Shown: one piece after another, positions 1,381 through 64,000 of the stretch
Layout: each line of letters begins with the position of its first letter
Position numbering within the stretch: position 1 is the stretch's first letter
From: Periconia sp. R9002
Taxonomy: Eukaryota; Ascomycota; Dothideomycetes; Pleosporales; Periconiaceae
Assembly (NCBI GenBank): GCA_023627715.1
Contig: JAMAHW010000066.1
Span: 173,697 to 237,696, forward strand
Reading direction: 5' to 3'
DNA length: 64,000 nt
Position numbers and translations under genes: made by a program
Notes under the pieces: generated by a model
Databases searched by the model: none
The model's input: only the letters and a program-made list of their open reading frames with translations
What the model was told of the DNA's origin: nothing

Positions 1381-2003
1381 AAGAGTACAGCATCATTTTT
1401 TTCCTTTTTTGATGTCTAAGGGTCTTTGACGGCGCTACGAGCGCTGTAGAGAGTTTTCCTGACTCCTACGAGTCTCTACTATGCTAGAGATATATCAGCT
1501 TAGCTTAGTTTTGCTCTAGGGCTGCAGAATGTGTTTCCATGTAATTTTTCATTTTTTGCCGTCCTGCGTGCATTCAGGTATATGCGGCGGCGACAACAGC
1601 GGAACGCCAGGATTTTCAAATTGCACGAGTCTGACTTGAACCGGAGACGCAAGATCTAGGCCCGATTTTATTTCTGGGGCGCGGAATGCGCGGGAAATGT
1701 CGCATACTTGGTTCGTCAAAAGTGGCGTCTTTCATGGAGGCGGATCTTTGGGAAATCGTGTCATGCATCGCGTTTCGTTCCATCAGTATCACATGAACAT
1801 ACAGCGGAGAGTGAAGAGAACATGAACGAAAACATGAACGAAAACATTACTGTCTCCGTTTGACAGCAAATCGTGTCATGATTTTACAGAATACCTATAT
1901 AGGATGATGGGCGAATCCGGCGCCGTCCAAGCAAGAGCATTGGCTCAAAAGTCACAACCAACACCAAAACTCCAATGTACACTTATCAATATATAGAATA
2001 AGC
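1381..2003. other. Intergenic between tRNA-Val and the Srs2 gene
   Basis: No gene is seen. A T-rich run just after the tRNA (about 1396-1410) can act as the Pol III terminator. Around 1820-1845 a 12-bp unit (AACATGAACGAA) is repeated in tandem about twice. The right part must hold the 3' UTR of the minus-strand helicase gene. Confidence 0.5.
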
Positions 2004-5000
2004 TCAACCTAGCCGTGGTCGAGGCGTATTTTGGTGCTTAACAGTCCATCCCTGCACATTCCTCCGCACACCCAAAGTCTTTTTTTGTGTTCCCGCAGGT
2101 CGATTCTGTAGCTGTTCCATTGATGTTGTGTGGAATGTAGAGGCGGTCCGAGACACACTTGTCGACGTTAATGAGAAAGAAGTTTTTATGGTAGGACTTT
2201 TTGCTTCAAAATCCTGGGGCTTCGAGGGACTTCCGGGTTTTGGAGGCACACTCGACAGATCTACCAATCGCTGATCTTCCGGCTCAACTCTCTTCGGTTT
2301 GCTGGCTATTCGCGCATTTTGCACTTTGTAGTTCGGAAATGATGGTGCTTGGTACGGGCGCGACGGGGGTAACGGTTGAGGCTTTAGATTTGAGATATCC
2401 GCAAGAGCAGAGCTCTCTGTAAGTGACGATGACGACCGTTTTAGCAAGGGTGCCTTTACTGGCAAATCCTCTGCTTCTTCTGTCACGGTTGATTGGGTTC
2501 GAGAAAAGAAGCTGGTAATAGCTCCTTGTCCTGCGGCACGTGGTTTAACCTTCCTCGGCTGTACGGCTTTCTTTTCAAACAATTTCGTCTCCTTGTACGC
2601 AGATTTGCCGGTCGCTGCATCTCGGGCGGTTGCGAGCATGCGGATGGCCTCAGCCTCTTCTTGCATTTGCTTTATATCGCCGAGATCTTTGGCACTTGTG
2701 AAACCACCATTAGTACTTTTCATAGTGGTGTTTGCCACTGAGTAGTTTGTGCTTTGCTGCATGGTGACAGAGACGGAGCCACCTGCGAAAGAAGATGATT
2801 TCTCCAGCTTCCTTCGCTTAGAAAATTGCTCAGACTGCTCATTGCTGGCTCTTGGTTCATTCCACGAAGGTTCTTCCCCGTCGATTGCTTCTCGCGTCAA
2901 TGGGTATTGGACATCTTCAGGAAACTCCGTTATTGCACGGGCTGCTTCAATCGCTTCAACAGACGGGCATTCCCGACCCAAAATCGTCGCAATATCATTA
3001 AGCACTGTACACCCTTCCGCGGGGTTTCCAATCGTTGGCCCGCTCAGAGTAAACAGCTTTTGAATATCTGGCTCGGAGATGAATTTGGAAAGCACCGTAT
3101 CCTGTTGCCTAGATTCCCTGACGGGACAACTCAGATACAGCAAAGCCTGGGCTCGCGTCATGCCAACGTAGAGCAATCGTCGCTCCTCATCATGGTCCTC
3201 AGCCCTGGAATGAGGAATAGAACCATCATATACCGCAGGTATGAACGTGACAGGCCATTCAAGGCCCTTGGCAGCGTGGATAGTAGATATGGTGACTTGG
3301 GATAGCTCCTCGCCTTCATTCTTCTCGGCATCAGTCGAAAGAGCTACGTTCATAAGAAATTTTGATAATATGTCGGCAGCGGTATCTTCCCTTTGCTCAA
3401 CTCCATCAACCACTGGAAGTGCATCATCTTCCGTATTGATAAGTGTGCTTGCCAATTGAGTTGCTTGAAGCACAAGCTCCTCAACGTTAGCCCACCGATC
3501 TCTCCAGGAGTCCTTGTATTGGCCTTTGAGGTATGTTTCGAAGTGTATCTTGGTAAGCAAGTAGCTGATCAGTTCGACAATTGAACATCCCTCGCCGTCG
3601 TGGGCGAAAAGCTTTTGGCGCGAAGTGATGATCAGATGAACAAAGATATCGATACCATTCTGGGCTGGTGATGAAATCTTACTCTCCGGCCTTCTCTTCC
3701 CCTGCGCGAAGTCCAGAATCAGTTTCCACAATGTCACCTTTTTCTTGTCCGCTTCTGCAAGAAGAGCCTTGACTGTAGCTTCTCCGATCTTCCGAGAGGG
3801 TAGATTAATCACTCTAACAAGTGCTTCATTGTGGTCTGGCATGTTAATGACCTTTAAATAGTCCAATACAATTTTGATCTCTGCTCGATCGAAGAATCGT
3901 TTCCCTCCAACCATTCGATAAGGTATACCGGCGTTGCCCAACGCTCTCTCAATAGACAATGATAAAGCAGCTGATCGCAGAAGAATAGAGTAATCATTAT
4001 GTTTAAGCAGGCCGGCTGCGAGGGTCCTGGTTCGATTGATCTCTTCGACGACCCATTTCGCCTCGAGTTGTGCGTTAGCCAGATGACGCAATGTTGGAAT
4101 CGACCCTGCACAGTGTGTTGCTACCAGTGGTTTGTTAGGCCGAGCATCATCTTGCTCTATAACAGCCTTGGCAGCCTGAATAATACAGCCAGAAGATCGA
4201 TAGTTGTTCTCAAGGTGGATGGCGATGGAGCTTGGGTAGTCATCCCGCATACGCAAAAGATTCTTAATCTCCGCGGAGCGAAAACTGTATATGCTCTGAT
4301 CCGGATCACCCACGATGGTGATTCGGCCCTGCCTCTGTGCCATGAGCTTCATGAGGTCGTACTGAATATTATTGGTATCCTGGTACTCATCGATAAGAAC
4401 AGCCTGTATGCTCGAGACACAAGCAGGATGATTGCGGAGCAGTTCGACGGTTCGGACCAACATGTCATCAAAGTCGAGTAACTTTTGCTCTTTTAGATAC
4501 TCCTCGTACTCCGCATAAACGCAGGCGAATTCGTGTTGTTCAGCCTTTTTTTGTGTTGCGGCAAATTGCTCGACGGAAACGCCTTTTGATTTCAGTCCAG
4601 ATATTCGACCCCGTGCTTGTGAGGGTTCCACGTTGTATCTTTGCCGTTGTATGATTCGTTTCAGTATGCTGAGGGTCTCATTAGCGTCCGCAATGCCGAA
4701 GTTTTTGGGCAATCCGATGAGTTGGCCGTAGCGGAACAGAAAACGACGGGCCACCGAATGGAAAGTTCCGAGAATCAACTTCGATGCGATCTCCTCCCCG
4801 ACAAAACCGCGTATGCGCTCTCGCATTTCTCGCGCCGCTTTGATCGTAAAGGTACAAACAATGATATTCCATGGTTGGAGACACTCATGGTTGATATGAT
4901 ACGCGACGCGTGCCGTGAGGGTCTTCGTCTTCCCTGAACCTGGGGGAGCCAGGACTTGGACAACAGAGGCAGGACTTGTGACAGCACTTCTCTGTGCGTC

Positions 5001-6109: not shown

Positions 6110-7135
6110 ATGCGCGTCCAATTTGTCGCTACTTTATTCCTTACTGCCGTGTCAACGGTCACAGCAACTGTCGCTTTTCCCCGTTCAGTTCTCAACGGCC
6201 CTTGCACTGGCAAAGACGGAGCCTCTGGCGTGTGCGTTCCTACAAGCGACTGCAGTCGCGACAACGGCACCTACATCGACGATGCCTGTCCCGGCACACC
6301 AGAGAACATTAAGTGCTGCACGAAGCCTTCTTGCCAGCTCGAAGCCAAGAAAGGAGATTGTCGCTGGGTAGATAAGTGTACTGGAGGCAAAGAGCTCGTG
6401 CAGAATCTCTGCCCAGGTCCAAATGCTTTTCGATGCTGTATCACAAACGATGGTACACCCGCCAGTAGCTCGTTGCCCACAGTTACTAGCAACGCAACCT
6501 CTTCCGCTAAGCCCAGTTCAAAGCCGAGCGCAACATCCAAAACTTCAGCAAAGCCGGAACCTACAAAAAAGCCGGAGCCAGAAACAAGTCTTGGAGAGAA
6601 GGTCTTGAAGAAAGCGAAAGAGGCTGAAGGCATTGACTGTAAGTTCTTACGACCAGTAGCTGTCTATGAGAAGAAGAGACACTAACGCGGTTGTAGATCA
6701 TTGGGCTGGAGGAAGCTGTAAAGGTCCCACAGGCGGTGGTTTCGACTGCTCCGGCCTCGTTTCATGGGCCCTCTGTCAAGTCACTGGCCGTGATCTATTT
6801 AGCGAAGGCCTTCGTGTCACCCGCAGCATGTATTGTGCAAGCGAAAAGAAACTGAAATATGAGTACGACATCCTCAACCCCTGCCCATCTCTTTCAATAA
6901 ACTAATATCTCATCTTAGCAAAATCAAGTGGGAAGACCGCCGTGTTGGAGATGCTGTTTTCTTTGGTGGCAAATGTGATTGTGAAAACAACCCCAAAAGT
7001 ATTCACCACGTTGGCTTAATGATGGATAGTGGGCATACCATGTTCAACGCGCTGAAGACGGGTACTAAGATTAGGGTGGATAACTTCAAGAACTGGGATG
7101 AGAGCGCTTGTCCCTACGTTATCCGCTTCAAATAG
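6110..7135 (+). CDS. Secreted NlpC/P60 (CHAP-like) cysteine peptidase/amidase with Cys-rich N-terminal repeats
   Basis: Three exons: 6110-6638, 6697-6862, 6919-7135, giving 303 aa. Both introns (58 and 56 bp) have GT-AG ends and CTAAC/CTAAT branch sites. Residues 1-22 or so form a signal peptide (MRVQFVATLFLTAVSTVTAT). Two similar Cys-rich modules follow (about 29-77 and 78-115), each running C...C...DC/KC...CPG...CC, then a Ser/Thr/Lys/Pro linker (about 120-165). The C-terminal domain has the NlpC/P60 nucleophile in FDCSGLVSWAL (Cys194) and the partner His262 in SIHHVGLMM. Such enzymes cut peptidoglycan stem peptides or related amide bonds outside the cell; fungi lack peptidoglycan, so an antibacterial or bacterial-wall-scavenging role is inferred. 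The family call is good; substrate is unknown. Confidence 0.85.
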
Positions 7136-7248
7136 ATACCGGCTTGGAGTTACAGGGGCTAGCTGAAGAAGCCGTAATCTAATTTCATGGTGGTAACAGT
7201 CTCGTCAGCCTATCACTTAACGACATATTTTATTCATATTGTGTATTA

Positions 7249-8472
7249 TCACTCTTCTACAAGCTCCATATCTGTGGTATTTTTTTGAAACCATTCAACG
7301 CTTCTTTTGATTCCTTCCTCAGTGTCACAGACAGGAACATATCCTAGCCTCCTTCTGGCTTTCTTTATTGAGAACCAACACCCACCCGACATGAATTCGA
7401 AATGATCCACCGTCATGGATGGTCTCTTGCTTCCAAATGTAACAACCCAACACAGCCATTCACTTATCCATGCAAGTGTGATCATGACCCAGAAAGGTAT
7501 GACGATGAACCTTTGCTGCTCTATTGGCCTATTGCAAAAACGGTCACCAGCAGCCTGCAATACTTTTCTGGTGAAATCCCATAGTTTCATAGGGGACGGA
7601 TCAGCAATAAAGAAAGCCTCCCCATCCACACGCATGTCGGGACGTAAATGCGCACCATCCAGTAGCGCTTTCGCAGCCTTCAAATGGGCTTGAGCGCCAT
7701 TTTCTACATAGCACATTGAATGTACAAGCTGATTTGGTCCGATCTGAATTCGTGCAGCAAGAGTATTGCTTACGCTCATCATTTGTCCGATTGTCACTTT
7801 ATCTCTTGGGCCGTATAATCCAGTAATCCTTATACTAGTCGTGAGTAGCTTTCCATGCCAGTCTGCTTTCTCGGAGAAATCGACAGTTGTGGCGTCTGTA
7901 TTCGATCCTAATACGAAAGTTTCTGTGGCACCTTTGGCTCGACTGTAAGCCGAAGCCGAAGAATTCCAGTTGTTTACAATGGTTTCCGTCTCGTCTACCG
8001 GTCTTTTATTTGTGTTTGGGTCCAAATGTACGCAATTGACCGAACCAGTCCAGACAAAAGCTCGTACACTTGGATGGCGTTTTGCCAGCTCCAGAAGGTT
8101 TTTGGTCCCTAGATATGATACGCGATAATGTCTTGTAGAAGTCCATAATCAGTACAACATATTCGCACCGTTGTTGCTAACTACTTACTGGCTTGGTAAA
8201 GCAAATGCGCCTGGCGAAACAGTGTGCACGATGACCCTCGGCTCAATTTCATTTAACAAATTCTCGACTTGATTCAAGTCCATAAGGTCACATGGTCGGT
8301 ACTCTACCCCTGGGATCCTAAATTTGTTTGGGTTGCGCGATACAACTACAACTCGTGTGCAAGACGACTCTGCCGCAAAAGCTTCGGTAATAAAAGATCC
8401 GACAAAGCCACAGCCGCCGGTAACGAGAACTGTTCCTAGGAATCCAAGGCTCGGTTCGCTGAGCTCTGCCAT
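7249..8472 (-). CDS. 3-beta-hydroxysteroid dehydrogenase/sterol-4-alpha-carboxylate dehydrogenase-like NAD(P) enzyme
   Basis: Two exons: 8472-8189 and 8131-7249; the 57-bp intron starts GTAAGT and has a TACTGAT branch site. The product is 388 aa. The N-terminus carries the Rossmann dinucleotide motif TGGCGFVG (residues 18-25), and the extended-SDR active pair is Tyr157/Lys161 in AYSRAK, with a typical TGSV stretch at 123-126. A hydrophobic segment (FIVIPFWVMITLAWISEWL) in the C-terminal half suggests membrane association, as in Erg26-like enzymes. It probably oxidises a 3-beta-hydroxyl on a sterol or similar lipid. Whether it is the true ERG26 of ergosterol synthesis or one of several fungal paralogues cannot be decided here; divergence from the core family makes a paralogue more likely. 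It is transcribed away from the decayed CorA-like gene across 459 bp. Confidence 0.85.
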
Positions 8473-56900: not shown

Positions 56901-57140
56901 GCGACTTCGGCGACCTCATCAGCGTCTCTGTCTGACACGGGCGAGGGTAGCGGGATCGGAAGCGAGAGGGAAATTTGGAACGGTGAAGTCAGTGCGGTGG
57001 TTGGCCTGCAAAAGAGAGGATTGAGAGGATTGATGGAAGGACGTCGCATCCGGGAGATGGGAAGGGGAAGCAGCAGGAGTAGAGATGAAGGTGGACCTTC
57101 CAATGGAGATGGAGTTGGTCTGGGTTTGATGAGTGGATAG
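53904..57140 (+). CDS. Kelch-repeat/BTB regulatory protein (Mds3/Pmd1/Ral2 type)
   Basis: A single long exon of 1078 aa from the first ATG; the more conserved start is probably the ATG at 54474 (MARQTPNPSRTNTIDSQTSA), giving 888 aa. Kelch blades start at REPHPLVGATTTILGDKLYV with FGGRRLSRTRPQLTSDLFEL, then GDIPPPRYFHSVCALGDTKL, APQGRYAHCATILPS, and GAEMVVVGGQDSANHYIEQI. A BTB-like part follows at LADMDFLAVHGERIPVNSHL with ARRWGPFFNQLLRES and, after a long Thr/Ser insertion, LPHTHLTLQALIHYLYTSSL. The tail is acidic. Mds3/Pmd1 tune pH and TOR-linked development in yeasts, and Ral2 helps activate Ras1 in fission yeast. A role in such signalling is inferred. The upstream 190 codons may be coding or leader. 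Confidence 0.85.
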   Translation: MFPLGVVAYPSVGASTTPLGESDTIWRKPKVFNLKRAWSNQRSPTCDPAHLHVRAKQKTPFLASSALFGSSSPVESNSPVCPLKPKYVPIVIPDYVPVLNPRLPCNSVGPGSLRSSTLVSSGHPSLSLLPSPSWKSVGDSSSIRSRHVEIVIPDWATPIQRSPSSSISQSVDTKALPTCASPAKEFSPASMARQTPNPSRTNTIDSQTSAPSPSQLYPNTFQNGAPNGNYSVNSSQSSLHEPDGERPPTSSARTPNPGISPALMQTAGLGTPSNSTSGLSGLVCNVHRTTGREPHPLVGATTTILGDKLYVFGGRRLSRTRPQLTSDLFELDLIKRHWTKVDAKGDIPPPRYFHSVCALGDTKLVCYGGMSPAMSNASQQPNQSATVMQGNQADGQPEVIVMSDIHIYDTLTRTWMNITTNDAPQGRYAHCATILPSSASFSSETATLAAIRHNPSSTNPNQGSIGHQVEGEGGAEMVVVGGQDSANHYIEQISVFNLRSLKWTATNMLGRSCGAYRSVVAPLTSLDPSKIGTSTRKRGESDASEEQDVSSRSPGASMLIYSNYNFLDVRLELQVRHSDGTLSEKPMQGNFAPPGLRFPNGGVINNHFVVSGTFLTSSKQEYALWALDLRTLSWGRIEAGHNIFSQGSWNRGILWSRRNSFVVLGNRKRSLVEDYNHRRINFTNICIVELEAFGLYDNPRKVSPYSAFVSGSAPRQPDGVDINAGGRLLSPAAAELGQIALGMRELADMDFLAVHGERIPVNSHLIARRWGPFFNQLLRESATSSDMADTATLRPATGLMHPSRNSSITITPSIRTAYSAATTLTNNTATPSEASTATVTSITQPPDPVTQPPATRPRTLYLPHTHLTLQALIHYLYTSSLPPQSSPLCTPQILCSLLQLARPYHIDGLLEAVIERLHVLLDNRNTAAIFNAAAMAAGGGTGVSFLGMNGANGTTNGHLDPSSSLGTSSSSVERSLDPGLRALRLNTDFEANRDDDVKSATSATSSASLSDTGEGSGIGSEREIWNGEVSAVVGLQKRGLRGLMEGRRIREMGRGSSRSRDEGGPSNGDGVGLGLMSG

Positions 57141-57656
57141 AGGAGGCGCTGGTGGCGGGTTATCTTTTCTTTTTTTTTTGTTCTTGACCTCATCAGCAAG
57201 CGATCATCCTGGGTTCTATGTTTTCCGTTGCGGTGGTGGCTATTTTTTTCACTTCTCTACTTCCTTTTTCCCCCTCTCATCTTATTCTCCTCCCTACCAC
57301 TTTTTTTTCTTCTATTCTTGGAACAAAGGACAGGCCATTTGATCTGGATGGAACGGCTTGCTACAAGAGGATGCAGATTTATGTATTGGGAAAGCGCTTC
57401 GTCGAACGCCCACGCCACGCACGATATAAACTTTTTTTTATTTGGAAATGAATGTATGTATGGAATGTATAGATGAAACTGATTGACCACTTATCTTACT
57501 TTGATTGAAGTCACTCATATGCATCGCGCGCCCTTTCCAATCTCGAGAATTTCTTGTTGTCGCTCGATGATCCTTCTCGGCTTACCTTTGCTTATTCCAC
57601 TCTTCTACACTGAGCCTCCCACGCCTCCCAACTTTCAAGGTCCCATCGTGTACATA

Positions 57657-57826
57657 TACTGTAGAATTTCGATGGTAACGAACAAGCCGTCGTTCTTAGC
57701 TACAGAGAATAGCATGCTCTTGTTAGCTACAACAGTTCTTTAGAGGAGTTAGTTGGCGAATTATAAAGCGTTGCTCTCCGCAGCCAAGAACGACGGCTTG
57801 CTCGTTATCCTCGAATTTCTACGGTA
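57657..57826. mobile_element. MITE-like element with 45-bp terminal inverted repeats
   Basis: The arms 57657-57701 and 57782-57826 are reverse complements at 39 of 45 positions, with an 80-bp centre. Taking the element as 57659-57824, both ends are flanked by TA, as for Tc1/mariner (Fot1/pogo) insertions, and the ends read CTGTAGAA and TTCTACGG. There is no ORF, so it would be non-autonomous. An alternative is a strong hairpin with a regulatory role. Confidence 0.6.
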
Positions 57827-58019
57827 GGCTAAAGACTTTTTTTTACCTTTAGAATGGGAAAAGGAACAAAAACATCATCAATTCAAAAAAAAACCACCTA
57901 CTCACATCCAAAAAATTCCCCGTCATCAAACGCATAGAAAATCCCCATTGTCGCATTTCGTCATCACAGAATCCTACCTCAGAACCAGGGGCCAGGCTAG
58001 CGAGTCAGTCGTCGTGAAC

Positions 58020-58062
58020 ACGCGTGTGTTGGGGGTTCGTGCGCCCCACTTCCCCGACGCGT
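58020..58062. promoter_or_regulatory. Two ACGCGT (MCB-like) boxes upstream of the RRM-PIF1 gene
   Basis: ACGCGT occurs at 58020-58025 and 58057-58062, about 316-358 bp upstream of the start codon. Paired MCB boxes are typical of G1/S-activated DNA-synthesis genes in yeasts; the function here is inferred. Confidence 0.35.
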
Positions 58063-58184
58063 TCCCAACCCTTCCTTCCAAGGTTTTTCTATCTTCCTCT
58101 CCCCTTCTCCCTCCCAATTGTCACGCTTCCTCACACACACGCGCACACGCGCGCGGAACCAATTGCTGTTATTCTGCATCCACT

Positions 58185-58186
<2 letters not shown>

Positions 58187-58219
<33 letters not shown>
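58187..58219. repeat. Poly-T tract (33 nt)
   Basis: An unbroken run of T lies about 160 bp upstream of the RRM-PIF1 start. Poly(dA:dT) tracts of this size exclude nucleosomes in fungal promoters, so it probably marks an open promoter. Confidence 0.85.
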
Positions 58220-58220
<1 letters not shown>

Positions 58221-58377
58221 GCTGCGTCCAAGTTTTAGAGCTGTACATTATTTCCACATACCGCCCACACGCTATACCACCGATTCCTAACCTACCCCAC
58301 GAACCCCTCGCACCATACCGCGTACCTATACATACACCGTTTGGAACTACACGTCTCAAAGCCGAGATCCACGATAA

Positions 58378-61300
58378 ATGAAATTGTTGGAGTGGCTTTG
58401 GGGAACAGCGCCGCAGAAAAGCACGCCGTCGAGCTACACGACCTCGACCTCATTGGGGAAGCATTCGAGAGAGGAGGTTTTTGAGGAGATTGAGGATAGT
58501 GATTCAGATGAAGCCGTTGGGTACAAGGTATCGCCGAAGAAATTGAGGAATGACCGTGGGGGATTGACCAGCAGTTCGCAATCGTCTGCGTGTGGAGACG
58601 CGCAGAAGGGATGGCAGATCGGTCGGGGGCAACTTCCCAGCAGTTCCCAATCAGAAATATATGTGCCGTGTAGCGATGACGAAGAGGAGGCGGAGATGGC
58701 GTCGCTACCTTGCAGCTCCCAATCGGAGGTACTGGTACCGGATAGTGAGGATGAGGAGGAGGAGGATAGACATAACATGTCGCCATCACGTCATGCATAC
58801 CAATATGATGCGCGGGTCAAGCCGGATAATTACGAGCTATCCAGTTCACAGCATGGACTTGACAGGATAATGGACAGTGAGGACGAGGAAGAGGGGGAGG
58901 AGGACAGACGTGAGACATTGCCATCGCGTCATGCAGAATATGATAACTCGGGGCACGAACGCAATGTGCCACGCCAACCTGATCCTCACCGACACACTCA
59001 CGACACGAACTGTACTCGGCGACCAGGACTACCGCCTCGCCCAGCCACTCCCAAAGAGCCGCCCTACGCTCCCCAACAACTCCCTAGTCCACCTCGCAGT
59101 GCTCAAGGGTCAAAAGAAAAGCCACCAAGCAATACTTTATACGTCGGCAACCTGCCCCGAAGTGCCACAAAAGCAGATCTCAGGGACTTGTTTTGTAGAT
59201 GGGGTCATATTATAAGCATTTCTTTGCCCCGCCACAAAAAAACCGGTAAACTCAAAGTATATGGCTTTGTTGAATACGCGTCGATGAATGAAGCTAAGAC
59301 TGCCTTGGCTATCTTACAAGGGCATAAAATCGACGGCAGCCCTATGCGTGTGGGATATGCAAAAGGTCGTCCCAACCATCCCAAGAATCAGGATCCCAAC
59401 CATCCCAGGAATCAGAATCCTAACCATACGAGGAATCAGGATCCCAGCGAGTGGAATGGCATGGCCGGACACGTTCAGTTCAGCGATTCTAGTGCACAAG
59501 ATGTCGGCATTAGTCCAGACTCAAACATAACTTCCCAGTCCACAATTCCACTGGCCAACGAAACTGTCGGACAAGGTGCAGGCGTAGGTTCAGGTTTAGG
59601 CCTAAATCCTCTGCCCCAAATCCCTCCAGTTGACGAGGCTGCTGCCAACATGGTGCCTATCGCCGAGCCTTCGTTGCCGGCCCAGACACACATCGCTAAC
59701 CCTGAACTATGTCCGGAGCAACTGCACCTAGTTGATTTGATCGTTAATCAAGAAAAAAATGTATTTTATACTGGTTCTGCTGGATGCGGCAAGTCAACAG
59801 TGCTGAAAGCCTTTGTCAAGGCTTTACGAGAGCGAAAAAAGAATGTGCAGATTGTGGCGCCCACTGGTCGTGCTGCTCTCGACGTTGACGGAATCACCAC
59901 ATGGACATATTGTGGTTGGACTCCAGACCACAAGAAGAAAACATTGGACGAGGCGAAGACTGTTGTTCATAACAAACATACATGGACACGGTTGAATAAC
60001 ACACACGTTTTGGTAATCGACGAAATTAGTATGGTTGAGAATTGTCATCTTGAACGCATCGACCTTGTGATGCGAGAAGCTCGAAACTGTGGGAAACCTT
60101 TTGGCGGCGTTCAAGTTGTAGCGACAGGGGACTTCTGCCAACTGCCACCTGTTAAGCCTTTCGAGAACTGCATAGAATGCGGGAAGACAATGTTTCCGAA
60201 GCCTGGTACTACAACGAAAAGATGTGCGGATCGCAAATGTCTGAAGTTCGACAAATATTATCTTGACCGGGATAAATGGGCTTTTCACTCAAAGGCCTGG
60301 GAAGAGTGTAAATTCGAGTACGTCAATCTTAAAACGATACATCGGCAAAACGATATCATATTCATTGACATCTTGAATAAACTTCGCATGGGCGAACCAT
60401 TGGGTGAACCCAGCATCGATATGTTGTTGAACCATGAATCGGAAACAACAGATGCGATTCAGCTTTTTCCTACAAAAAAACGGGTTAACGAAATCAACAA
60501 CGAAAAATTCAGCGAAATCCCATTTGAACACCGGCCCTACAAGTGTCTAGATCATTTCGAATGGCATAAGGAATACAAGGACTTCGAGCACCTAGGAGAA
60601 GTGATACGTGATGGTTCAGTAGACGATGGTTCATTGAAGTCCTTGGGAGAACATCGCTACAGTACCTACGTAGAACTGAAACAAGACATGCTTGTCGTCC
60701 TTCAGTCCAATCTTGACATCAGCCGGGGGCTGGTAAACGGGTCACAAGGGGTAATTCAAGGTTTCCAGCCTTATGACGAAAATAGGCTACCAAAAGCTAG
60801 CAGAAATCGAGAACCTGGTACTCTTGCTGGAGAGTTGGCTAGATATCGAGAGCAACGCATTCGCGACTTTGCAAGACGCACGAATCAGCAAGGGTGGCCA
60901 ATTGTTCAGTTCCAGAATGGCCCGTTGGAGACCATATATCCGGATTGCGCGGTCACCGAGTTGGGCGATGATGACGCAAAGTGTAGATTGTCTAGAACAC
61001 AGATCCCATTGATGGCTGGTTGGGCCATGTCAATACACAAAGCCCAGGTGAGTCGAACATCTATCTAACCGGGGCACACTCATGACCACCGTGTTTGGTT
61101 CAAAGTGAAAGTCGGCTATACAATCAGGAACGAAGCTGACAGAAACACAGGGCATGACGCTGAATCGGGTTATCGTAGACTTGGCCAAATGTTTTGAAAA
61201 AGGGCAGGCATATGTAGCACGTGAGTTGTTCCTTTCCTCTGCGACGTTCAAAACCAACTAATAGATGCTTTAGTCAGTCGAGCTAGGGACCTGAGGGGCC

Positions 61301-61386
61301 TGAAGGTTCTATCGTTTCCCAAGAACCCGCAGGTCGCAGATGAGGCTGTTGTAAAGTTCCTAAAGGAAAAACTCCAAGTTGAATAA
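58378..61386 (+). CDS. PIF1-family DNA helicase fused to an RRM, with SUMO-interaction-like motifs
   Basis: Three exons: 58378-61047, 61151-61220 and 61274-61386 (introns 103 and 53 bp), giving 950 aa. The N-terminus has repeated SSSQ/CSSQ segments followed by hydrophobic-acidic motifs: EIYVPCSDDEEE (about 93-104), EVLVPDSEDEEEEDR (about 117-131), and DRIMDSEDEEEGEED (162-176). An RRM spans about 252-328 (NTLYVGNLPRSATKADLRDL, RNP1 as KVYGFVEY). Three 24-bp tandem units (59371-59442) give NHPKNQDP-like repeats. The PIF1 helicase starts near 450: Walker A GSAGCGKST (466-474), APTGRAA, DEISM, GDFCQLPPV, IHRQND, and the C-terminal GWAMSIHKAQGMTLNRVIVD with AYVALSRARDL formed across both introns. 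A Cys4 insertion (Cys598, 601, 616, 621) looks like a zinc ribbon. PIF1 enzymes unwind G-quadruplexes and R-loops. The domain joins lie within one exon. Confidence 0.88.
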
Positions 61387-62167: not shown

Positions 62168-63628
62168 ATGTCAGCCGTTGATCAACTCAAGCAGCAGAAT
62201 GCTGCGCTGCAATGTAAGTGACGTGAAATATAACCATTCAAGAAAACGACATAGTACATATCATGTCCCTAACAATCCAATTACCAGCCAGCGTAGGCAA
62301 CCTCCAAAAAGTAGCCCAAGGCGCCTCGCAAAACGCGAAGAAAGCCCCTTCAACGGCTGCCAAAACCACATCTACGGCTACATCCAAAGCCGCAACTCCC
62401 GTCAAGAAGGCCACCCCGGCTGCTTCCCAGGCAAAGACAGCTGCATCATCTACATCTACGCCTGTCAAGAAGGCTCCAGCAACTGCTTCCAAGACTACAA
62501 CATCACCAACTGCCGTGAAGAAAACGGTTCCTTCGACGGCATCTACCGCAACGGGGAAAACAGCTAATGCTACCCCTTCGTATAAGAAGACTCCCATCGG
62601 TACTACCAAGACTCCCGTAGCTAGCAATACTTCCACACCGGTGAAGAAAACGCCCGCTGCGAGCACAGTAAACAAAACTCCAGCCTCCACCACCCCAGTA
62701 AAAAAAACCCCCGTCTCCTCAACCTCTACCCCCAAAACACCCAGCACCGCCAAAACCCCCATCAAAAAGACCCCCGTAAAACCCTACACCACAACGACAA
62801 ACCCCGACGGCACAAAACCCACCCCCTCAAGCACCCCTAAACCAACCCCCACCACCAACAAAAAACCCCCCTCCGCCCTCTCCCAAGGCATAAACACCAC
62901 AACCTCAACCCTCAACAAAACCGTCGGTCTAACCACCGGCACCGCAAACACAATCACCGACTCGGCCACGTCGGGCCTCAACACAACCGTCAACGGCGTC
63001 ACGGGCGTCGCCGGCAAAGGCCTCGACAAGCTCCCCGCCGGCGTCGGCAAACCCGTCAAGCACGTCACCGACAACGTGGGGAAGACGGTCACGGGCGCCA
63101 CGGATAACTTGTACTACACCGCAGGCGCCGCGACGAAGGGCGTGCAGGGGACGGTGAGTAAGACTACGGGCGCGCTGGGGAAGGGCGATGTTAAGGGGAC
63201 TGTTGGTGGAGTGGGGAGTGGGGTGGGGAATACGGTTAGTGGGACTGGGAAGGTGAGTTTCTCCCCTTTTTTTGTTCACATCTTTCTCTTTTTACGTCTT
63301 CTTCGTGGTTTCCGTTGCTCTAGTGGATCATTGCTAACGCACCGCTTCCAACCAGGGTCTCGGCAACACCGTCAGCGGCGCCGTGGGCGGCGTAGGAAAT
63401 ACCGTCGGCGGACCTCTTGGAGATGTGGTCGGCGGCGTTGGAAAGGGCGCTGGGGATGCGCTGGGTGGTATCACCGGTGGGTTAGGGGATGGTGTGGGGA
63501 AGTTGGGCAAAGGCGATTTCGTGGGTGGCGTGGGGAGCACGTTGGGGGGTGTTCAGAAGGGCGTTGGAGGGTTGCTTGGGGGCGTTTTTGGGGGTGTGGG
63601 TGGTGGGAAGGGGGAGGAGGAGAAGTAA
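62168..63628 (+). CDS. TPVKK-repeat, Gly/Val-rich low-complexity protein, unknown function
   Basis: Three exons: 62168-62213, 62288-63252 and 63356-63628 (introns 74 and 103 bp), giving 427 aa. Exon 1 encodes MSAVDQLKQQNAALQ; the join gives SSVGNLQKVAQGAS. Residues about 35-225 are Lys/Thr/Pro/Ala-rich with at least six TPVKK/TPIKK-type motifs, a pattern shared with histone H1-like tails and matching the CDK site S/T-P-x-K. Residues about 240-427 switch to a repeating amphipathic Gly/Val/Asn/Thr pattern (GVGNTVSG, GVGKGAGD, GGITGGLGDGVGK, GVGSTLGG), which resembles LEA-like or lipid-coating sequence. No membrane span or signal peptide. I do not recognise a family; stress protection or surface coating is a guess. 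Proteins with this C-terminal pattern occur in other filamentous fungi. Confidence 0.75.
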
Positions 63629-64000
63629 GGCAAGGAAAGGGGGATGGACGTGTGGTTGGGTGTGGAGGTAGGTATGTTTGGATGGGTTTGATGGGTCAAT
63701 GTGGGAAGTGTTTTTCTTTTTCGGGTTATTGTATGTTTATGAGGTTTGTAATTTTAATATTTTAGTTTCTATTTTTTTAGGTTTTGATATTAGGAAAAAA
63801 AATAATTGTAACGTCTTAACACGAAATCTATATACATAGCAACCAGGGGGAGAGAAAAACCCCTACATACTTATTTCTCCACCGCAAACCAAACCCCCCC
63901 AACAAAAGAAATCTAGTCACAAACGCCAAACAACCTTCCCCCCTTTAAACAAACCAGTACGAAAAAAAAAACAATCCCAACCTTCACCCACCACCCACCC
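63629..64000. other. 3' flank at the right window edge
   Basis: A T-rich 3' UTR is followed by A/C-rich sequence (A10 run near 63968) up to the edge. No gene start or end is visible. Confidence 0.5.

What the first reader, a model, noticed from the sequence alone, without database searches (positions are those of the whole stretch)
58378..61386. One reading frame joins an RRM to a PIF1 helicase
The RRM (residues about 252-328, with RNP1 KVYGFVEY) and the PIF1 core (Walker A at 466-474) are in the same uninterrupted exon, so the join is not an artefact of splicing prediction. PIF1 resolves G-quadruplexes and R-loops; an RNA-binding module would suggest direct recognition of the RNA strand or of telomeric RNA. 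I know of no described PIF1 protein with an N-terminal RRM.
Basis: partly seen in the sequence, partly recalled or inferred. Interest (0 to 1): 0.78.

Follow-up and report, generated by a model that had tools for sequence, protein, structure and literature searches.

The report
RNA-binding domain fused to PIF1 helicase
A fungal gene joins an RNA-binding domain to a DNA-unwinding motor of the PIF1 family in one unbroken exon; some related fungi carry a different module, such as an RNA:DNA-hybrid-binding domain, at about the same place, so this helicase is probably aimed at RNA on DNA.

Summary
One exon starting at ATG 58378 encodes an RRM (RRM_1, residues 254-323, E=1.6e-17) and a PIF1 core (447-593, E=6e-28; Walker A 466-473) with no stop or intron between. 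Two short introns follow; the spliced protein has 950 residues. An in-frame TAA precedes the ATG.

The helicase belongs to an unnamed ascomycete PIF1 subfamily with a cysteine-rich insert, separate from the genome's canonical PIF1. None of the 185 relatives listed by two capped searches has an RRM. But 18 of 185 carry an RNase H1-type hybrid-binding domain (HBD), which in 14 ends 109-136 residues before Walker A; in four relatives a SUMO-like domain ends 95-141 before it. The RRM ends 143 before it: the same N-terminal slot, on a mostly disordered tether.

Best reading: an accessory RNA-recognition module aims a 5'-3' motor at R-loops or other RNA-bearing DNA. Architecture is shown, function inferred. 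Nucleolar targeting, ssDNA or protein binding remain open. No close relative of this fungus could be searched, so conservation of the fusion is untested. A new variant of a known kind, of moderate interest.

The parts
58378..61047 (+). Exon 1 (890 codons): N-terminal acidic region, RRM, linker and most of the PIF1 core
   Evidence: Open frame; in-frame TAA directly upstream of the ATG; Pfam
61048..61150 (+). Intron 1 (GTGAGT...ACACAG)
   Evidence: Removal restores SIHKAQ-GMTLNRV; no transcript data
61151..61220 (+). Exon 2 (helicase, after SIHKAQ)
61221..61273 (+). Intron 2 (GTGAGT...CTTTAG)
   Evidence: Removal restores GQAYVALSRARDL; no transcript data
61274..61386 (+). Exon 3, C-terminal end of the helicase and stop codon
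58378..59136 (+). N-terminal region (residues 1-253; residues 1-250 pI 4.83): four SQ sites (67, 90, 114, 157) within repeated SSSQ / DSEDEEE blocks
   Evidence: The SQ clustering is not clearly beyond shuffles
59137..59346 (+). RRM (Pfam residues 254-323), RNP2 LYVGNL and RNP1 KVYGFVEY; the last strand of the single-domain model lies just beyond, at about 324-327
   Evidence: Pfam RRM_1 E=1.6e-17; PDB sequence matches; model with beta-alpha-beta-beta-alpha-beta order, mean pLDDT 68.5, Foldseek hits to RRMs. In the joint model the RRM is of low confidence (blocks 42-66) and lacks the last strand
59347..59715 (+). Linker (residues 324-446); most of it predicted disordered
   Evidence: AlphaFold2 pLDDT under 50 over protein residues 316-438; pI 4.65 for 332-445
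59370..59446 (+). 24-bp tandem repeat, 3.2 copies, in frame (NHPRNQDP-like units)
59716..60156 (+). PIF1 helicase domain (Pfam residues 447-593; Walker A at 466, Walker B VIDEISM at 546, GDFCQLPP at 584)
   Evidence: Pfam PF05970 E=6e-28
60169..60240 (+). Cysteine-rich insert (residues 598-621, C-x2-C-x14-C-x4-C), probable zinc ribbon
   Evidence: Columns of C598 and C616 invariant, of C601 in 90% or more of 43 aligned rows; the fourth ligand position of the relatives is a His column (90% or more) where this protein has Arg619, with C621 nearby. Zinc binding is inferred
60676..60765 (+). Pif1 2B domain trace (residues 767-796)
   Evidence: PF21530 E=0.0016, below its cut-off (18.6 vs 23.9 bits)

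Best explanation
A single-polypeptide DNA helicase of an ascomycete PIF1 subfamily in which an N-terminal RRM, on a roughly 120-residue flexible tether, captures single-stranded RNA (nascent or displaced RNA at R-loops, or pre-rRNA) and so holds the 5'-3' motor at RNA-bearing DNA, where it strips the RNA or clears secondary structure. In some Dothideomycete relatives an RNase H1-type hybrid-binding domain sits at a similar position and would do the equivalent job by gripping the RNA:DNA duplex. Shown: one exon, domain identities, fold order, spacing, presence of HBD or SUMO-like modules in relatives. Inferred: expression, RNA binding, R-loop substrate, unwinding polarity, replacement of an HBD by the RRM.
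For: One uninterrupted exon with both domains far above the Pfam cut-offs. RNP aromatic positions kept (Y255, Y295, F297; the consensus is recalled). The RRM model matches RRMs solved with RNA or ssDNA, such as HuD, HuR and FIR. Basic RRM between acidic flanks (residues 250-332 pI 10.15). HBD in 18 of 185 relatives, in 14 ending 109-136 aa before Walker A, against 143 for the RRM. Helicase motifs intact; model matches human, Candida and yeast Pif1 structures. On the careful tree, read with the 11 outlying rows as outgroup, this protein groups at 92/92 with 15 rows, 14 of which have an HBD (one partial). Published precedent: the NTD of yeast Pif1 contributes to stimulation by RNA-DNA hybrids and its authors hypothesise that it contacts single-stranded RNA and DNA (PMC6628001, one section and passages read; PMC8998199, passages); Pif1/Rrm3 binding to tRNA genes rises when R-loops are stabilised (PMC5413955, abstract).
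Against: No transcript, protein or binding data. No close relative was available (best identity 58% over 473 columns), so selection on the RRM cannot be tested. No listed relative has the RRM (0 of 185). The HBD itself is found in a minority of relatives. RRMs can also bind ssDNA or protein (Y14/Magoh is among the fold hits). In the joint model the RRM has low confidence. The end branch of this protein is long (0.8, 0.88), which may mean relaxed or changed constraint and makes its place on the trees unsure; its nearest sister is unresolved. One review argues that the role of yeast Pif1 at R-loops may be to resolve G4 DNA on the displaced strand and not the hybrid itself (PMC8998199, passage).
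Confidence: 0.5

Rival explanations
1. The RRM is mainly an address label: a nucleolin/NSR1-type RRM that concentrates the helicase in the nucleolus or on pre-rRNA, so that it acts at rDNA replication barriers, without direct RNA handling during unwinding.
For: The nearest RRM in the genome is RRM2 of a gene (L006) with an acidic serine-rich stretch and a GAR tail like nucleolin/NSR1 (likeness recalled). Among 15 RRM segments, taken from 12 of the 22 genome places, the two are reciprocal best matches. Pif1 family helicases act at the rDNA barrier (PMC8998199, abstract). The acidic SSSQ/DSEDEEE N-terminus is nucleolin-like in composition.
Against: The tree of those 15 segments resolves nothing and puts the RRM weakly with a different gene (81/72); both RRMs have short branches, so their similarity may just be closeness to the consensus. 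PDB and NCBIfam matches are spread over PABP, nucleolin, ELAV and RBM39/CC1-like RRMs.
Confidence: 0.22
2. The RRM binds single-stranded DNA or G-quadruplex DNA, or a protein partner, rather than RNA.
For: The fold hits include FIR RRMs bound to ssDNA and the Y14-Magoh complex. Nsr1/nucleolin acts on G4 DNA in yeast (PMC7768239, abstract and passages).
Against: In Nsr1, G4 binding in vivo needs the RGG tail (same abstract), and no such tail is seen in this protein. The RNP aromatic residues are kept. Some relatives carry a hybrid-binding domain in the slot.
Confidence: 0.15
3. In vivo the two halves are made apart: the helicase starts at an internal ATG (for example residue 362 or 427), or two transcripts are used, and the fused frame is incidental.
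For: Some relatives have almost no N-terminal extension (for example P0158, 11 residues, though it comes from a short contig and may be incomplete). No transcript data.
Against: In-frame TAA directly before the ATG and 890 codons without a stop; frame 0 scores best by codon usage in the linker blocks; no intron is needed between the domains.
Confidence: 0.08
4. A recent chance fusion or assembly chimera without function.
For: Seen in one assembly; 0 of 185 listed relatives have it. Reads were not available.
Against: The frame, RNP motifs and helicase motifs are intact. The RRM is only 38% identical to its nearest match in the genome, so it is not a fresh copy of one found there. The other member of the subfamily in this genome (C164) shows stops while this one does not.
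Confidence: 0.05
5. The gene is part of a Helitron transposon, whose RepHel protein has a PIF1-type helicase.
For: Fungal Helitrons carry PIF1 domains, and one has captured a PF01693 gene as a separate gene (PMC4289320, passages).
Against: The only Helitron Rep domain match in the genome is on another contig, C151; no second intact copy of this helicase was found; the Helitron transposase is a distant structural match.
Confidence: 0.01

Closest known systems
Unnamed ascomycete PIF1 subfamily with a cysteine-rich insert (e.g. P0005 Paraphaeosphaeria minitans, P0023 Parastagonospora nodorum, P0012 Cercospora beticola; called 'ATP-dependent DNA helicase PIF1' or hypothetical protein by the sources)
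   Same: Helicase 49-56% identical by BLASTP for the 60 best rows; cysteine insert in the same place; variable N-terminal extension
   Different: None of the 185 listed has an RRM. 18 have a hybrid-binding domain and 5 list a SUMO-like domain (located upstream of the helicase in four)
RNase H1 N-terminal hybrid-binding domain (PF01693) as fused to PIF1 in some Dothideomycetes
   Same: A small nucleic-acid-binding module ending, in 14 of 18, 109-136 residues before Walker A (143 here)
   Different: Unrelated fold; HBD grips RNA:DNA duplex, RRM single strands (both recalled). No HBD found in this protein or upstream of it
Canonical PIF1 / ScPif1 and Rrm3
   Same: PIF1 core and fold; N-terminal regions that modulate nucleic-acid binding (PMC6628001, section and passages)
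   Different: This genome has its own canonical PIF1 (L001), 38% identical in the best stretch, with no RRM match there; Rrm3's name has nothing to do with the RNA recognition motif (recalled)
Nucleolin / NSR1
   Same: Nearest RRM of the genome; acidic serine-rich region before the RRM
   Different: No helicase; two RRMs and a GAR tail

Membership tests
PIF1 family helicase (PF05970) | Pfam model above the curated cut-off | tested here: met
   98.4 vs 25.9 bits
PIF1 family helicase (PF05970) | Motifs I, II, III and VI intact | tested here: met
   GSAGCGKS 466, VIDEISM 546, GDFCQLPP 584, GQAYVALSRA 908 after splicing
PIF1 family helicase (PF05970) | PIF1 signature between motifs II and III (consensus recalled: DKLExVARxIR) | tested here: inconclusive
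   ERIDLVMREAR here, DKLEQIARTIR in the canonical gene of the same genome; read by eye. A conservative variant, not the strict consensus
PIF1 family helicase (PF05970) | PIF1 fold | tested here: met
   Foldseek E 1.3e-30 to human Pif1, TM-score 0.68 by target length, 0.45 by query length
PIF1 family helicase (PF05970) | 5'-3' DNA unwinding | not testable with these tools
   Needs enzyme
RRM (PF00076) | Pfam model above the curated cut-off | tested here: met
   63.6 vs 20.7 bits
RRM (PF00076) | RNP1/RNP2 with aromatic positions | tested here: met
   LYVGNL 254, KVYGFVEY 293; Val in place of the usual Gly at RNP1 position 2 (consensus recalled)
RRM (PF00076) | Beta-alpha-beta-beta-alpha-beta fold | tested here: met
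   Model of 92 aa, mean pLDDT 68.5; Foldseek hits RRMs. Last strand missing in the joint model
RRM (PF00076) | RNA binding | not testable with these tools
   Needs protein
Canonical PIF1/Rrm3 orthologue | Being the genome's canonical PIF1 | tested here: not met
   A separate gene at C1:1143078 scores higher on PF05970 (146.1 bits) and falls outside the subfamily on the tree
HBD-PIF1 fusion of Dothideomycetes | RNase H1 HBD upstream of the helicase | tested here: not met
   No HBD match in the protein, in the linker or in 57140-59110 in six frames
Helitron RepHel | Helitron_like_N (PF14214) | tested here: not met
   The only genome match is on C151

The most novel reading that the evidence does not exclude
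Ascomycete cysteine-insert PIF1 helicases have an exchangeable N-terminal targeting slot that evolution refits with unrelated modules (RNase H1 hybrid-binding domain, SUMO-like domain, SUMO-interacting motifs, and here an RRM). In this lineage an RRM has replaced the hybrid-binding domain, shifting recognition from the RNA:DNA duplex to the free RNA strand: a natural domain-swap experiment on how a PIF1 motor is aimed at R-loops.
Probability: 0.3. Interest if true: 0.75.

Novelty: new variant of a known kind. Interest (0 to 1): 0.52.

Why it matters
PIF1 helicases act at R-loops, G-quadruplexes and rDNA (PMC8998199, abstract), but with few exceptions the role of their non-helicase domains is unknown (PMC6628001, passages). 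A PIF1 with a recognisable single-strand RNA-binding domain, beside cousins with a hybrid-binding domain in a similar position, gives clean separable constructs to test whether RNA recognition aims the motor. The HBD-PIF1 pattern may matter more than the single RRM case, because it repeats across relatives.

Tried and rejected
A third protein search with the RRM alone found 16 candidates and no hit at E<=0.001; generic RRM proteins were missed too, so it says nothing about absence. The RRM tree was unresolved, so the donor stays open. The hypothesis of a checkpoint-kinase SQ cluster was dropped: 53 of 171 extensions pass a 3-in-100 SQ/TQ rule against a shuffle mean of 47.2, and the query's four SQ are reached by 7.9% of its shuffles. 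SUMO-interacting motifs by a strict (recalled) pattern occur in 61 of 171 extensions against a shuffle mean of 6.5, maximum 13, but in none of the query; rows are related, so this is no independent count. A recent duplication from C164 was rejected: its best stretch is 47% identical to the query, and 96 of 186 rows match it better by non-overlapping tblastn pieces (an earlier sum that double-counted overlaps gave 136). Helitron origin was rejected. A telomere at the contig end was looked for by eye and not seen. The direct sister placement with the HBD clade (82, quick tree) was not upheld by the careful tree and is not claimed; only the wider 16-row group (86; 92/92 when the outlying rows are taken as outgroup) is used. 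The whole-molecule model gives no confident RRM-helicase contact (linker pLDDT about 30). A SUMO-like domain listed for P0007 was not seen at E<=1e-5 in my own scan.

Full report
What is there. The frame from 58378 is open for 896 codons and the codon before the ATG is an in-frame TAA. The final codons are intronic: taking out 61048-61150 and 61221-61273, both GT..AG, restores the PIF1 motifs HKAQGMT and GQAYVALSRA and a stop at 61386, for 950 residues. In exon 1 alone Pfam finds RRM_1 at 254-323 (63.6 bits, cut-off 20.7) and PIF1 at 447-593 (98.4 bits, cut-off 25.9). RNP2, RNP1 and Walker A fall at 254, 293 and 466. Codon scores trained on the neighbouring Kelch ORF favour frame 0 in the linker blocks; elsewhere one block of 15 (181-240) slightly favours frame 1 and one (601-660) is a tie. 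A 24-bp minisatellite in the linker keeps the frame.

Which helicase it is. Solved Pif1 chains match it by sequence and by fold. The genome has four PF05970 places: a canonical PIF1 on C1, this gene, a Helitron helicase on C151 (the contig with the only Rep domain match of the genome) and a decayed-looking copy with stops on C164. Searches of 5.8 billion proteins return many ascomycete relatives, 49-56% identical over the helicase for the 60 best rows. These share a cysteine insert after GDFCQLPP: the columns of C598 and C616 are invariant and that of C601 is 90% or more in 43 rows. On a quick 179-row tree this protein lies in a 29-row set (support 99) whose named members, Paraphaeosphaeria, Ascochyta, Alternaria, Bipolaris, Plenodomus, Parastagonospora and Neocucurbitaria, are Pleosporales (the order name is recalled); the genome's own canonical PIF1 is far outside. 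On a careful 40-row tree, read with the 11 outlying rows as outgroup, it falls in a 16-row group at 92/92 with P0009, P0089 and the 13-row Pleosporales clade; its place inside that group is open. Its branch is long on both trees.

What relatives carry instead. Of the 185 distinct relatives listed none has PF00076; a scan of all 185 with the RRM itself and with a profile of the genome's RRMs gave nothing below E=1. Both searches list only their best 120 of 3292 and 415 hits, so rarer or more distant RRM fusions could be missed. The surprise is another module. A profile made from six HBDs located finds an RNase H1-type hybrid-binding domain in 18 of 185 relatives; in 14 its end lies 109-136 residues before Walker A, in the other four 194-228. 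The weakest of the 18 (P0110, E=2.2e-4) and the partial P0101 are uncertain. Five of 185 list a SUMO-like PF11976; in the four where my scans located it, it ends 101, 101, 95 and 141 residues before Walker A (P0012, P0013, P0024, P0031). In this protein the RRM ends 143 residues before Walker A, and no HBD is left in the protein or upstream. Within the 16-row group above, 14 of the 15 other rows have an HBD (one partial; all but P0009), so an HBD in the common ancestor and its loss here is a fair reading. The HBD also occurs outside, in Verruconis (P0017), P0094 and weakly P0110, and in P0136, which was not on the tree; whether it is old and often lost or gained more than once I cannot tell.

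How it may work. The RRM, modelled alone, has the full beta-alpha-beta-beta-alpha-beta order (mean pLDDT 68.5) and matches RRMs that bind RNA or ssDNA. It is basic (residues 250-332 pI 10.15) between an acidic N-terminus and an acidic linker. In the joint model protein residues 316-438 are disordered (pLDDT about 30) and the RRM itself is of low confidence, without its last strand, probably because the alignment was nearly empty there; so the RRM is best seen as a tethered hook and not part of the motor. Yeast Pif1 offers the closest precedent: removal of its N-terminal region lessens the stimulation by RNA-DNA forks, and the authors hypothesise that this region contacts single-stranded RNA and DNA (PMC6628001, section read). 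The review PMC8998199 (passages) reports the same result more strongly, but also argues that yeast Pif1 at R-loops may mainly resolve G4 DNA on the displaced strand. I therefore commit to an R-loop or RNA-bearing-DNA helicase whose RRM holds the RNA strand, at about even odds. All of this last step is inference.

Where the RRM came from. The best genome match outside this gene is RRM2 of a nucleolin/NSR1-like protein on C88 (38% identity), reciprocal best among 15 RRM segments from 12 of the 22 genome places, but the tree has no support there. A nucleolar role is thus a live rival.

Novelty. Ten paper searches showed no listed title or abstract start on an RRM-PIF1 or HBD-PIF1 protein. Searches returned no paper; for only the top of the hit list was seen (12 of 108, 10 of 43, 15 of 32). 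Subscription papers are mostly not covered. The kind (PIF1 helicase) is known; the accessory domain is new to me. The main weakness is that the RRM fusion is known from one assembly only.

Noticed in passing
L023 (G000 C25:394505), locus 1414-3084: A 556-aa ORF with an RNase H1-type hybrid-binding domain at 30-71 and no other Pfam match at E<=0.001, followed by a low-complexity tail with two KKKRGRPPK AT-hook-like motifs (my notebook entry says three, wrongly).
   Followed up: partly
L024/L025 (G000 C24:364780-365153): Two hybrid-binding domain matches side by side, upstream of what looks by eye like the start of an RNase H fold: probably the ordinary RNase H1 gene with two HBDs.
   Followed up: partly
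relatives P0012, P0013, P0024, P0031: SUMO-like Rad60-SLD domain N-terminal to the PIF1 helicase in relatives from Cercospora and Lecanosticta; P0007 lists it too but it did not reach E<=1e-5 in my scan.
   Followed up: partly
N-terminal extensions of the PIF1 subfamily: Strict SUMO-interacting motifs in 61 of 171 extensions against a shuffle mean of 6.5.
   Followed up: partly
L026 (G000 C164:17000-26999), about 6445-8234: A decayed-looking second member of the same PIF1 subfamily, no nearer to the window gene than to many other fungi, with no RRM or HBD match.
   Followed up: partly
G000 C151:19427-22724 (L003, L028): A Helitron-like element: Rep domain and PIF1-type helicase, with DUF6570 upstream.
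   Followed up: no
62263-63765: Low-complexity Thr/Pro/Lys-rich then Gly-rich ORF with no Pfam match at E<=0.001 about 0.9 kb downstream; the window ends where contig C66 ends and no telomere repeat is visible there.
   Followed up: partly
58187-58219: Uninterrupted run of 33 T about 160 bp before the ATG.
   Followed up: no
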